DNA of 64,000 nt from positions 8,779,028-8,843,027 of the forward strand of contig NC_049982.1 of NCBI RefSeq assembly GCF_000003815.2, given 5' to 3'. The position numbers were made by a program, and so were the translations under genes. Below are positions 10,930-16,900 of the stretch, in pieces (position 1 is the first letter of the stretch; every line of letters begins with the position of its first letter). Source of the DNA: Branchiostoma floridae (Eukaryota > Chordata > Leptocardii > Amphioxiformes > Branchiostomatidae). The notes beneath the pieces were generated by a model that saw nothing but the letters and a program-made list of their open reading frames with translations, searched no databases and was not told the DNA's origin.

Positions 10930-13900
10930 CTGGAAGTAAAGGTAGCCAGTCAATAACAGTTTCTTTCAATTCATTTAACTGTAAGTGCATGAGGAGCAAT
11001 GGGTTTCCATTAGCAGCTTTAGCATTTCTAGGAGGCATCATGAATGATAGTAATGGTGAATGTTGTAATTTCTAAAAAAATACAAAGTGTTATCATCAAT
11101 TCATCTGTGAGCATTCTGTACAATATTATCAGCCAAGATTACCTTATCAATCAACTTTGACAAAATGGTCCTTGACAAAAAAAAAACTGTTAAACATGAC
11201 TTGCTAGAAAATTAAACTACTAGGTATACATTCATGATATTCAATAGCAACATACACTGTCTCAGACAGACACAAAACATTTCTGCAGAAATCTGCAATC
11301 CATTCACAACTTATTAGTGATATGTATTGTTGTAAGTTACAAATACTATTAAACTAATATGATGGATGATTATATATAAACATGGAGACAAGAAGGGAAA
11401 AGAGAAAACTGTGCTTCTGAAAACTTGTGAGAAAAGGAGATATCCAAAATAGAAGAGGAGGAATAGGGAGACTCCCACAACCTGCAATGCATGAATCACC
11501 TGCTAGGAAGAGCTGCTGAATATATCCAAATTTAACCCACAGTGTGGATAGGAACGTTTGGCAATTCTCTGTTCTACGGGGATTTGGGGTGGGGTGGAGG
11601 TCTACACACTACATGACTGTACACTGTATTCTCTATTTCCCTTCATCGGAGACAAACACGGTGGATCTGTCAGTTAGTAACGGTGACTTCCTTCGTTTCC
11701 TAGATGGATTTGTGCACTTGGTGTTCACACACTCGCCATGCATGTTAGGGGAACGGACACGATGAACGTGTACGACAGTTAGCCTGACGTTTCCTGAAAC
11801 CTACGTGAGACCACCGGGCCCTCCCCAACCTCTTCCTCAGTGGAGCGGCGCTTGATATTGGACCCTTTGTGGTCGATGGGCTCGTTTTGTATGCCCTCGT
11901 CTAAGGGTTTCAAACTGGCATCTTTGTCGGTGGGAATTAGAGAACCCTGGGACATATTCTTGTAACCTGCTTGGAGCATAGGAATCACATAAATCATGAT
12001 TGATTGGCATTGACCTGATACCACTTATCATTGCAAGCATCAAGTCATGATGTATAGAACAAAGAGATAAACCCACAAATCACATAGTCATTAGAAGCTA
12101 TTGCAAGTATTGGAAAACAAATTAACAGCAAGAGTATGAAAAGACTGCAAGATCAAATTGAAATAAGGAATGAACTAGAATCAGGAAAGGAAATTCTGGC
12201 ACCACGTTCTGTATTTTGTACCCGGTACTTACTTCCATCTCCGATGATGACTTGAGGTTTGCTGGGATTAAATCCGCTCTGTGAGGACTTGTCTGGTCCT
12301 GAGGTGGTCACACGGGGCTGGTAAAAAAAAAAGGTAAAGAGAACAAAAGTTAGAATAAAAAACAGCCCAATTATACAAACAAGTTTTCATTGGCCCTCAA
12401 ACTGGGACAGATATATTTCATTTTAGGTTTCAATTTCACTGGCCATTTGAAACTGTCTTGATCTACAATGTAGATGTAGTGTAGCTCTCAATTACACCTC
12501 CGGATGGTTAAAGTTAAACATACACAATATATTCATTAACAATGATAATTAACATCAGTGTATTGAGTACATGTTTGATATCAAGATGACATCTGGCATA
12601 CTCATTAAAATGCTTTCATACCATACAACTGACTAACAATGAATCAAACTTGCATATTAATGAATAAGGAAAGGAACTATATTATTTTTTCCACCCCTCA
12701 AATATCCACTCATAGGTCAATGAGAGTTCTCTACAACATGGATTAGGGGCTGGACTTACCACAGCAGAGGTTGGTACGATCGGTGGTCCTGTGGGCACAC
12801 GGGAGTCATGTGGGACATGTGCACAGCAGTAGGTCGGTGGCAGGGCTGCTTCTGTCCCGTTCACTACACAGACAAAATATTGTGCAATGTTACAACAGGT
12901 ACAAATATTTAGTTGCGTAATTACCACTTTTAGCAAACTATGAGGAGGTGGAAAAGACCACGCAATAAATTCTAATCTGGCCCAAAAAAGCTTAGCAAAA
13001 TCAAAACAGCACAAACTAAGAGGGAGAGGACCTTACGGATAGTGTTTCTCGACTGGTGAAGTGGGATGAATTTTGTGTCCCACATAAAAATTCTCATAAG
13101 ATTCTGGGATCTTCAATTATGTTCACTTCTAATATCTAATGTAACACCCCCCCCCCCCCTCCCCCATGACTGGGAGGTCTAATGACTAGATTGGTAGGTA
13201 TATACATGTCTGATACCATTTTACGAGAGATAATAAGTTTACCTGGACTGACTGTCCCCAGTTCTATTGGGTGGCCTCCAACTGGGTACTGGGTAGTGGT
13301 GTCCAGTGCCACTGGGTTCTGGGTGGGATTCTGATTTCTATAACAAAACAAGAACATGTACATTGTCAAAAATGATTAGCATTGTGACAGTGAAATATCT
13401 TGTTTGGTCACATCTAATCTCTGAATGTATGCTTAATGCTGGAAATTTCGAACATCACAAACACAAAAGGCATATGGATCAAAACACAAAAAGTTTTCTC
13501 TTTCAAGACAAAAGTTTGATCAAGAACACCTACATTGGAGGTTCAGTTGGAATGTTTCGGACTGCTGCTAGCATCTTCTCAGCTTCGATTGGCTGCAGAG
13601 AGTCATCACCTATTGACACAAACATTAGGTAATCCACAGTCACAACAATCCATCATATGCAAACATCTTAAAAATTGATCATCTGTAAAGTATGTTTAAG
13701 ATACAGGACATCTAATAGGAATACAATGATGTCTGGCCTGTCTCCATACAAAACACCTGAAAGCACATTGTGAAAAAGTCCATGAATATACAAGAATGGA
13801 AAACTGGCCAGCATTAGTCTTAATAAGATGCATGCCATGGGGCTGTCAGTTTCTAGGAGGTTACTTTAATTCATCTATGCACATGATACACCAGTACACA

Positions 13901-16900
13901 CCATTCTCATCGAAGTGATGGAACACCAGCTGCAGGATGCCTGACTTGTGGGCCTCGTCCGCGCTGACCCACGTGTCGTTGTTCATGTCCATCATGTAGT
14001 AGGAATCGATAGACACCAGCGGCACCAGCTGGTCCTGCCACAGATACATGTTTCCTGGAGGGAAAATCCAAAATTATCAATGTCGGTTTGACTGAGTTGA
14101 CCATCGCAATGTCTCTGTTCATTTCTGCATCTGTATAGCTTGGCATAACCGCCATTTGGAGCAACACACCAGCCTCGCAGGCACTCGGTGCAACAGTAGT
14201 TACAGTTATATTACACTGATTCAGAACTGCCTATCACACCTAAACCTTGCAAATCTAGCTGCACGTGTTGCTCAAAGCTATCTAGAGAGGATGCTCCCAC
14301 TGTATCTATTTATTGTACTTGATTCAAGGAAAGATATACCTCTACAAGATCCAAGCTGTTCACTTCAACAGAAACTTAATATTTCAGTAACTTCAGGCAT
14401 GGGTTTTGTCATGGACATATATATTGAGTAGAGATGAATTGAGCATCACCCTAGTTAAGAGTTCTGCAAATTGTCCCTTTGTTAAGTGGAAAGCACTAAA
14501 GAAAACCATGGAGTCCTGTCATCCTCACCATCTGTATCCAGATGATCGAACAGTTTGGCTCCACTGACGACTGTGACAAACTCTGTTGGTGAGATGCTGT
14601 TGTCACTGTTCAGATCCATGGCATTCCAACTGGAAATCCTGCACAGGGGCAAACTCCAGTTACAAAATAGACAGGTTCCTGATAACTTGCTCATCAAACT
14701 TTCACTCCAAAACAGGGCCGTCTCCAGCTTTGAATTTTATCTGTCGCACTTATTGTTTCGGGCCAATGTTGTTGATTTTCCTGGTTAAATATGACACTTT
14801 AAGCTAATGAAAGTACAGTTTCAACAGTTTCGTGTCATTTTTCGGACGGAAGGGATAATATCATTTTCTGTCCCAACAAGCAAATTTCTGTCCCAGGACA
14901 GAAGGATGGGTCCTGGAGACAGCACTGCTACTAAACTACCTGAGTGTAAATTTGTTTAGATATCAATTAGCCTTTGTGTATCTTTTTTTACATTATACGG
15001 TCAGAGATCAAGATTAAAAAATACCACATGATTTTTTGTCATCATCTTTGGCAAATACAAAGTACAAATTGAATGTACATCTTACAGCATGTACATGTAC
15101 ATACTTTTCAATTTCGCTTTCATCCTGTAGAAACAAAAATTGAACTCTACATCAGGAGTATACAAACTTTAAGTCATTTCTGTCCTGGTATCTCTTTTTT
15201 TTTACAGTTTATGGGTTTATTACTAACAGCTCTACGACTTACTCTGCCAGACTGACAGTCTGGATTGTCCCTGTGGAGTCTGTCGTTGTTGTCTGGGTCT
15301 CCAGGACATACAGGGTTGTCATAGCAACCACACTGCAAAACAACATTTCAGAACGTTAGGAAATACGAAACATACAGAGTTACATAATGACTGGTATTCA
15401 ATTTATTCATTAAGATAGAATGTAGTCAGTGCCCAACTTTTTCTGTAAAAGACATTAGACTGATAATTGTATTTTCAAGTAACAAGACATAAGAGCATCA
15501 ACAAGAGATGTCTGTAAGGATAACTGTCAGTGTATGACTTTTTGGAGCTATTGCAGCCTGTTGCATGTATGTCATTAATACAAATAGACTGCCATCCACA
15601 GAATTAAGTGGAAAAAAAAGATGGAGACAAAGTGCACAAAGTGGAAAAAAAAGATGGAGACAAAGTGCACAAACATAATACTACAATGTACAACTTCCCT
15701 TACTCACCAGAAAGCCATGATGAGAACGAGAGCTATGACTGCCCCCTGCATGAACCTCTGGGAACAGAACCGCCTCTCAGGGGTTGGGGGTGGGTAGGGA
15801 CCCTGCAGGAAATACACAAATGTGCATGTATTACATGATTGATCACAGGATCAAAGTTAGCAGTTCAATTTGTCAATTAAATGTTCAACTTCCTACGAAA
15901 AGTGTCCAACACATCTAGCTCAACACACCTTACCGTCAGAAAACATAGCTTCTTTATTTCATATCCCAGTTTCTCAATGCTTCTACTTCTAGGTACGTGA
16001 TGTATATTAGATACAGGCTTCCACATTGACTTACATGGTGTCTGCCATGTCTGCCACTCTTCATAGATTTGCCCTTGTAACTGGCTGCAGTGCTGCCACA
16101 CCGACTTCTGCAAGGCCAAGAACAAAATATGGTCTCAAAACTGTCAAATCACAAAATACATTCAATTGCTGTGCATGCTGCAAAAATAATTCCGGGTTCT
16201 CCAAGAGTAAGACATTAAGACACAGGGCTCTAGCCAGCTCGACATTTTTTTCCGTCAGCCAATTCCCATTGTCGCGAAAACACGATTCCAGGAGTTAGAG
16301 AGACTGAACTGAGACCTTGAAAAACGGGTTTTAATGAGATTATCGTATGCGAAAGGGCACCGACACACATTATCAACAATCATAACAATAGCAAAACAAA
16401 CAGTGTGTGGTTTTGACGGCCGTGGACGGCGTCCCCAAGCAGCCTGTAGCTTCCACCAAGGAGCTTTTATCAGATTTTTGTCCGTCAAAGTTGACGGATT
16501 GGTTTTAAAATTTTTCCGTCACACGCAGCAAATTTCCGTCAATTGACGGAAAAACGGACGCTGGCTAGAGCCCTGTTAAGACATCAAAAGTCTGAACTTA
16601 CACCATCAAGTAATTTATGGAGCACACACTACAGACACATCTTTACAATTGTAGCATTTTCCTACAGTAGCATGATTTGTTTGTATATGCTTCTTCAAGA
16701 TCAAGGTAGCATATTACTCTTGTCTTATGCTCTTATGCCAAGATAAGGCACAGACAACGTTTTAGTAAGTCTAACAAGTCCTACTGCACATGTATCTCCA
16801 TTTCCTTACCCGACAGTTGTTGCTGTGCTGGTGCTGGATGTGGACTTGATGCTGTCTAACCTCTTCAGCTTGGCAAGTTTCTTGTTCATCCGCTCCAGCT

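What the first reader, a model, noticed from the sequence alone, without database searches (positions are those of the whole stretch)
13534..14638. A MYRF transcription factor with four luminal EF-hand loops
Seen: three exons between the MYRF transmembrane exon and the MYRF C-terminal domain encode four EF-type loops, three of them with canonical ligand positions. Frames match on both sides (2165 coding bases before, phase 2; join completes a Glu codon; phase 2 after), so this is one protein. Known: MYRF is a self-cleaving ER membrane factor, and the vertebrate luminal region has no EF hands that I know of. Inference: calcium in the ER lumen could tune folding, trimer formation or partner binding, and so release of the DNA-binding fragment. 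The 25-26 residue loop spacing is shorter than in calmodulin, so the fold may be unusual.
Basis: partly seen in the sequence, partly recalled or inferred. Interest (0 to 1): 0.88.

Follow-up and report, generated by a model that had tools for sequence, protein, structure and literature searches.

The report
Membrane transcription factor MYRF with EF-hands
In what is probably a lancelet genome, the gene for the self-cutting membrane-anchored transcription factor MYRF carries three extra exons that encode four calcium-binding-type (EF-hand) loops on the far side of the membrane, so calcium there might influence how the factor is held or released, which can be tested directly.

Summary
On the minus strand, 22 exons (19699-9306), all with AG/GT borders, read as one 850-residue MYRF frame with NDT80 DNA-binding, S74/ICA self-cleavage and MRF_C2 domains and a transmembrane segment. 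Three exons between the transmembrane exon and MRF_C2 (14638-14529, 14054-13902, 13609-13534) add 113 residues with four 12-residue EF loops; three have canonical ligands. Alone, the block passes Pfam's EF-hand_6 and EF-hand_1 cut-offs; in the 850-residue protein EF-hand_6 scores 24.9 against 25, so Pfam cut-offs just miss it. Loops are 14, 13 and 14 residues apart, close to lanmodulin (12-13), far from the usual ~25. The block is a duplicated two-loop unit; both inner introns cut the second loop of their unit at the same place and phase. Searches of the genome found only this copy. Skipping it keeps the frame; no transcript data were available. Calcium binding outside the cytosol is likely; control of trafficking or cleavage is unproven, and human MYRF cleaves without any luminal region. 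No paper found reports it; other animals' MYRF could not be checked.

The parts
16810..19699 (-). MYRF exons 1-7 of this reconstruction: NDT80/PhoG DNA-binding domain, Peptidase_S74 self-cleavage domain, MYRF_ICA coiled coil (likely earlier N-terminal exons at about 20500-24000 seen but not assembled)
   Evidence: NDT80 7.2e-29, S74 3.1e-14, MYRF_ICA 1.9e-21
16035..16107 (-). MYRF exon 8: Ser/Gly/Lys-rich cytosolic linker between ICA and the transmembrane exons
15243..15802 (-). Two exons (15802-15708, 15332-15243) encoding the basic cytosolic flank, the transmembrane segment and the start of the non-cytoplasmic region
   Evidence: hydrophobic stretch read directly
14529..14638 (-). EF exon 1: loop 1 ([12 protein letters not shown]) and first part of loop 2 (DTDG)
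   Evidence: phase 2 to 1
13902..14054 (-). EF exon 2: rest of loop 2, loop 3 ([12 protein letters not shown], with an NDT glycosylation sequon) and first part of loop 4 (DENG)
   Evidence: phase 1 to 1
13534..13609 (-). EF exon 3: rest of loop 4 (DDSLQPIE) and the last segment of the block
   Evidence: phase 1 to 2
11805..13337 (-). Four exons of Pro/Ser/Thr-rich linker (13337-13243, 12863-12760, 12317-12233, 11966-11805)
9306..10929 (-). Five exons encoding the MRF_C2 domain and the stop codon
   Evidence: MRF_C2 5.4e-24, positions 2-138 of 138

Best explanation
The three exons give this MYRF a compact array of four EF loops, spaced nearly as in lanmodulin, just outside the membrane and ahead of MRF_C2. 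Three loops bind Ca2+ with modest affinity suited to the ER lumen or extracellular fluid. Bound Ca2+ orders an otherwise flexible stalk and so sets the oligomeric or partner-bound state of the ectodomain, which biases whether full-length MYRF is held, exported or cleaved to release the DNA-binding fragment. Shown here: gene structure, loops, spacing, internal duplication, only copy found. From papers: topology, trimer-dependent self-cleavage, influence of the ectodomain on cleavage in C. elegans. Inferred: Ca2+ binding, ordering, and any effect on trafficking or cleavage.
For: One open frame across 22 exons with the MYRF domains. Three of four loops canonical; Pfam EF-hand over cut-off on the block. 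Luminal EF-hand control has a precedent in SEPN1, a type II ER protein whose oligomer depends on luminal Ca2+ (PMC7474598, passages). In C. elegans, loss of the whole MYRF-1 ectodomain gave nuclear signal at early stages and precocious rewiring, while loss of MRF_C2 alone gave blocked rewiring (in a myrf-2 null background) and no nuclear signal; the authors deduce constitutive, incomplete cleavage in the first (PMC8099431, section 12). The difference is the segment between membrane and C2, where this block sits. MyRF cleavage needs ICA trimers (PMC8326128, abstract and passages). [quoted passage not shown]
Against: No metal-binding, transcript or structural evidence. Human MYRF truncated before the transmembrane segment is processed normally in HeLa cells, a 319-708 fragment is processed in HeLa and E. 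coli, and full-length MYRF in yeast (PMC3742443, passages), so cleavage itself needs nothing luminal and the block can only modulate. The worm comparison is confounded: both deletions arrest development, and the C2 deletion also gave dimmer protein. Loop 2 lacks the acidic 12th residue; no loop has Gly at position 6; loop 3 holds a glycosylation sequon. AlphaFold2 of one exon was of too low confidence to help. ER Ca2+ may be high enough to keep the sites always full.
Confidence: 0.35

Rival explanations
1. Constitutive structural site: Ca2+ is always bound in the ER and simply folds and protects the stalk; there is no regulation by changing Ca2+.
For: The authors of the worm study infer that the MYRF ectodomain is prone to degradation without its partner PAN-1, so a stabilising module would be useful; human MYRF cleavage is autonomous.
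Against: None direct; cannot be separated from regulation by sequence.
Confidence: 0.38
2. Regulated cassette: the symmetric 2-2 block is spliced in or out, giving MYRF isoforms with and without the EF array in different tissues (compatible with either functional reading).
For: Skipping the block keeps the frame to the normal stop (738 residues against 850, counts without stop 737 and 850); a MYRF splice form lacking exon 19 is described as predominant in retinal pigment epithelium (PMC7153906, passages).
Against: No transcript data here; an insert keeps the frame by chance about one time in three.
Confidence: 0.25
3. Metal-independent binding surface: the array now binds a partner (TMEM98 or an LRR protein) without needing Ca2+.
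For: Loop 2 is degenerate; the C. [quoted passage not shown]
Against: Ligand positions 1, 3, 5 and 12 are intact in three of four loops, which is not expected without selection for metal.
Confidence: 0.15
4. The EF exons belong to another gene or are not used.
Against: Frame and phase fit on both sides; no stop across 22 exons; exon-like GC in a low-GC intron background; no other copy or separate gene found.
Confidence: 0.05

Closest known systems
MYRF family (vertebrate MYRF, C. elegans MYRF-1/2)
   Same: NDT80 DNA-binding domain, S74 with Ser and Lys five residues apart (S-D-M-R-A-K), ICA helix, one transmembrane segment, MRF_C2
   Different: Four EF loops between the transmembrane segment and MRF_C2. 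The term EF-hand has 0 occurrences in the main text of 7 of 7 MYRF-related papers in which I searched it. Other animals' sequences could not be checked
Lanmodulin (LanM)
   Same: Four EF loops with very short spacing (12-13 residues in LanM, 13-14 here)
   Different: No proline at loop position 2; 20.7 bits against a cut-off of 135, and calmodulin scores better (37.3), so no kinship is shown; an animal membrane protein, not a bacterial soluble one
Selenoprotein N (SEPN1)
   Same: Type II ER membrane protein with a luminal EF-hand; proposed use of luminal Ca2+ to set oligomeric state
   Different: A reductase, not a transcription factor; its Ca2+ sensing is experimental (passages), ours is inferred
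Usual Ca2+-responsive EF-hand proteins (calmodulin and others)
   Same: 12-residue loops with the same ligand positions
   Different: About 25 residues between loops there, 13-14 here

Membership tests
MYRF | NDT80/PhoG DNA-binding, Peptidase_S74, MYRF_ICA and MRF_C2 domains in order | tested here: met
   All four over Pfam cut-off
MYRF | Ser-Lys catalytic dyad five residues apart | tested here: met
   [10 protein letters not shown] read; spacing as S483/K488 in the worm and S587/K592 named for mouse constructs
MYRF | Single transmembrane segment after ICA, C-terminus luminal or extracellular | tested here: inconclusive
   Hydrophobic segment with basic N-terminal flank read; topology itself only from papers on human and worm proteins
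EF-hand superfamily | Profile match over curated cut-off | tested here: met
   Block alone: EF-hand_6 37.2 vs 25, EF-hand_1 30.8 vs 25.4 (2 of 6 families); in the 850-residue protein 0 of 4 EF models pass
EF-hand superfamily | Oxygen ligands at loop positions 1, 3, 5 and Glu/Asp at 12 | tested here: met
   3 of 4 loops; loop 2 has Gln at 12 (loops)
EF-hand superfamily | Loop flanked by two helices | tested here: inconclusive
   Model of one exon with intron-encoded ends: two 6-residue helices around loop 3 with strands between, mean pLDDT 54.5
EF-hand superfamily | Binds Ca2+ | not testable with these tools
   Needs protein
Lanmodulin | Adjacent loops 12-13 residues apart | tested here: not met
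   14, 13, 14; two of three gaps are one residue too long; criterion from PMC10232371 passages
Lanmodulin | Pro at loop position 2 in at least one loop | tested here: not met
   Leu, Thr, Met, Glu in the four loops
Lanmodulin | NCBIfam LanM cut-off of 135 bits | tested here: not met
   20.7 bits; calmodulin control 37.3 bits

The most novel reading that the evidence does not exclude
A calcium-gated membrane transcription factor: luminal or extracellular Ca2+, read by a duplicated EF array of near-lanmodulin spacing next to the membrane, directly controls MYRF oligomer state, export or self-cleavage, and this input exists in this animal (probably a lancelet, perhaps ancestrally) but not in the vertebrate protein.
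Probability: 0.22. Interest if true: 0.85.

Novelty: new variant of a known kind. Interest (0 to 1): 0.6.

Why it matters
What relieves the inhibition of MYRF self-cleavage is unknown; the worm preprint suggests extracellular ligands or modifications. An EF array in the ectodomain names a candidate ligand (Ca2+) and gives a clean mutagenesis test. Its spacing would also make it an animal example of the short-linker EF arrangement described for lanmodulin, here apparently arisen by duplication of a two-loop unit.

Tried and rejected
Separate or unused gene: rejected on frame, phase, composition and copy-number grounds. Kinship with lanmodulin: the LanM profile hit was rejected as evidence after the calmodulin control scored higher; the other NCBIfam hit, XopAW (21.8 vs 120 bits), is likewise generic, since calmodulin gets 109.7. 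A paralogous donor elsewhere in the genome: protein searches with the block and with exon 2 returned only the block itself (3 matches, the three exons, 4 candidates scored; 1 match); these searches score only first-look candidates and read exon by exon, so a diverged donor could be missed. A LanM-profile search of the genome gave 4 places, best E 0.0975, and did not return the block itself, so it is insensitive to arrays split by introns; its best place (L006) reads as two loops starting 30 residues apart, as in penta-EF-hand proteins (recalled), so not a donor. Solved structures: nothing close (best E 0.3 for the block; E 0.00084 for a two-row profile, a sarcoplasmic Ca2+-binding protein whose best stretch covers one loop). 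MYRF or block relatives in viral contigs and MYRF relatives in bacterial genome contigs, as a way to reach other animals through contamination: none. Structure prediction: low confidence, so no fold search was made. A MYRF partner next door: an LRR membrane protein lies about 7 kb downstream, but its tail has 69 matching places genome-wide, some of them repeats within one gene, so adjacency is taken as chance. Resemblance of a short post-membrane stretch of human MYRF to loop 2 is recalled only and was not tested. The juxtamembrane inhibitor described in PMC12803276 is cytosolic and is not this region.
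Full report
Observation. The finding describes three exons on the minus strand between the transmembrane exon and the C-terminal domain of a MYRF gene. I rebuilt the gene from 19699 to 9306. Twenty-two exons, with AG at 22 of 22 acceptors and GT at 21 of 21 donors, join into one open frame of 850 residues plus a stop. Pfam finds, in order, NDT80_PhoG (7.2e-29), Peptidase_S74 (3.1e-14), MYRF_ICA (1.9e-21) and MRF_C2 (5.4e-24), all over cut-off. 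The Ser-Lys dyad is present ([10 protein letters not shown]).

The EF block. The three exons (14638-14529, 14054-13902, 13609-13534) add 113 residues. Four 12-residue loops begin at residues 8, 34, 59 and 85 of the block, with 14, 13 and 14 residues between them. Loops 1, 3 and 4 have Asp or Asn at 1, 3 and 5 and Glu at 12; loop 2 ends in Gln. None has Gly at position 6. On the block alone 6 Pfam families match at E up to 1: EF-hand_6 (37.2 vs 25 bits) and EF-hand_1 (30.8 vs 25.4) pass their cut-offs; EF-hand_7 (27.5 vs 30), EF-hand_5 (23.4 vs 25.9), EF-hand_8 and SPARC_Ca_bdg do not. In the 850-residue protein 0 of 4 matching EF models pass, EF-hand_6 by 0.1 bit; an annotation by Pfam cut-offs would miss the feature. 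That this is why it went unremarked is inference. In the window as a whole the recalled PS00018 pattern matched once in six frames, at loop 1; a looser pattern matched 9 places, 2 of them in the block.

One gene. The phases fit at both ends (2 in, 2 out), with a Glu codon completed at the first junction. Pooled GC (0.50) and third-position GC (0.63) of the three exons resemble the other 19 (0.52, 0.60), against GC 0.32-0.41 in introns; the last EF exon taken alone has third-position GC 0.36, the lowest of all. MYRF_ICA gave one match in the 513-Mb assembly, and the block only itself. The assembly size suggests Branchiostoma floridae (recalled; not shown by any search).

Internal duplication. 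Loops 1-2 and 3-4 form two units. Over the first 37 residues, ungapped, 12 are identical; 0 of 20000 shuffles reach the score. With the ligand columns left out, 14 of 20000 do, so likeness goes beyond the EF consensus. Past that point, after the shared Gly, the units diverge: over 51 residues 13 are identical. Both inner introns fall after Asp-x-x-Gly of the second loop of their unit, in phase 1 (DTDG and DENG). The middle exon is therefore one repeat length, phase 1-1. The simplest account is tandem duplication of a two-loop unit that already carried this intron. The whole block is phase 2-2: leaving it out gives an open frame to the normal stop, so it could be gained, lost or skipped without breaking the frame.

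Spacing. Lanmodulins have 12-13 residues between adjacent EF loops, against about 25 in usual Ca2+ proteins, and fold as an unusual three-helix bundle; EF2-EF3 and EF1-EF4 pair (PMC10232371, passages). The block's 13-14 is close to that. It is not a lanmodulin: no Pro at position 2, 20.7 bits against 135, and calmodulin itself scores 37.3 on the same profile. The fold is not established: AlphaFold2 of the middle exon with intron-encoded ends had mean pLDDT 54.5, with two short helices around loop 3 and strands between them; the spliced protein could not be submitted.

Place in the protein. In human MYRF the C-terminus lies in the ER lumen, and the same paper calls the lumenal domain poorly conserved (PMC3742443, passages). 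In C. elegans MYRF reaches the cell membrane and binds the LRR protein PAN-1 through the ectodomain (PMC8099431, passages). Worms lacking the whole ectodomain showed nuclear signal at early stages and precocious rewiring, from which the authors deduce constitutive though incomplete cleavage; those lacking only MRF_C2 showed blocked rewiring in a myrf-2 null background and no nuclear signal (section 12). The difference lies in the membrane-proximal part, the position of the block here; but both deletions arrest development and differ in protein brightness, so the comparison is not clean.

A result against regulation by the block. Human MYRF cut off before the transmembrane segment is processed normally in HeLa cells, a 319-708 fragment is processed in HeLa and E. 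[quoted passage not shown] Mouse MyRF 351-717 was the construct of the structural study, which finds that cleavage needs ICA trimers (PMC8326128, abstract and passages). Cleavage therefore needs no luminal part; the block can only modulate it, or act on trafficking or partner binding.

Mechanism. I take the most likely account of a functional role to be a Ca2+-ordered stalk whose state sets oligomer or partner binding and thereby retention, export or cleavage (0.35). A permanently filled structural site is about as likely (0.38) and cannot be separated from it by sequence. SEPN1 shows that a type II ER protein can use a luminal EF-hand to change oligomeric state (PMC7474598, passages). An NDT sequon in loop 3 could, if glycosylated, affect that site.

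Literature. Searches for MYRF with EF-hand (13 papers, none on MYRF EF-hands by title), Myrf with EF hand (2), myelin regulatory factor with amphioxus (0), Myrf with Branchiostoma (3, none about the gene by title), MYRF with luminal and calcium (9), MYRF with juxtamembrane and cleavage (3), and broader ones of which only the top was listed (20 of 53; 12 of 675; 12 of 480) showed no title or abstract start on EF-hands in MYRF. In 7 of 7 MYRF-related papers searched for the term, EF-hand has 0 occurrences in the main text (PMC13294678, PMC12803276, PMC11223767, PMC8326128, PMC3742443, PMC8099431, PMC7153906); I saw passages of these, not the whole texts. The library lacks most subscription papers, and no protein database of eukaryotes was available, so the block may already be annotated in some database entries.

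Limits. No RNA evidence, no eukaryotic relatives, no binding data. Whether this is lineage-specific or an ancestral part lost in vertebrates is open.

Noticed in passing
window 2-1294 and 1654-2175 (-): Single-pass leucine-rich-repeat membrane protein on the same strand about 7 kb downstream of MYRF; C. elegans MYRF binds an LRR membrane protein, but the tail of this one has 69 matching places in the genome, so adjacency is probably chance.
   Followed up: partly
window 16222-16576, MYRF intron 7: 355-bp element with perfect 17-nt terminal inverted repeats, MITE-like.
   Followed up: partly
window 14705-14940, MYRF intron 10, just upstream of the EF block: Dispersed repeat of about 220 bp with 41 matches listed, itself included, from 1277 first-look candidates of which 40 were scored.
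   Followed up: partly
window 7063-7404 (+) and 46000-46398 (-): Two similar-looking pieces, each with the Mos1-transposase-type HTH_48 domain over cut-off.
   Followed up: no
window 42522-44708, 45160-45822 and 50254-50967 (+): A 728-residue frame with C2H2 zinc fingers and two further frames of 220 and 237 residues that look alike, suggesting a local duplication; the 237-residue frame had no Pfam match at 0.01 and the 220-residue one was not scanned.
   Followed up: no
window 40420-40534 (-): 5S rRNA-like sequence barely over the Rfam cut-off (39.4 vs 38 bits), perhaps a 5S-derived repeat.
   Followed up: no
window 13902-14054 (-), loop 3: N-glycosylation sequon NDT lies inside the third EF loop, at loop position 4.
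   Followed up: no
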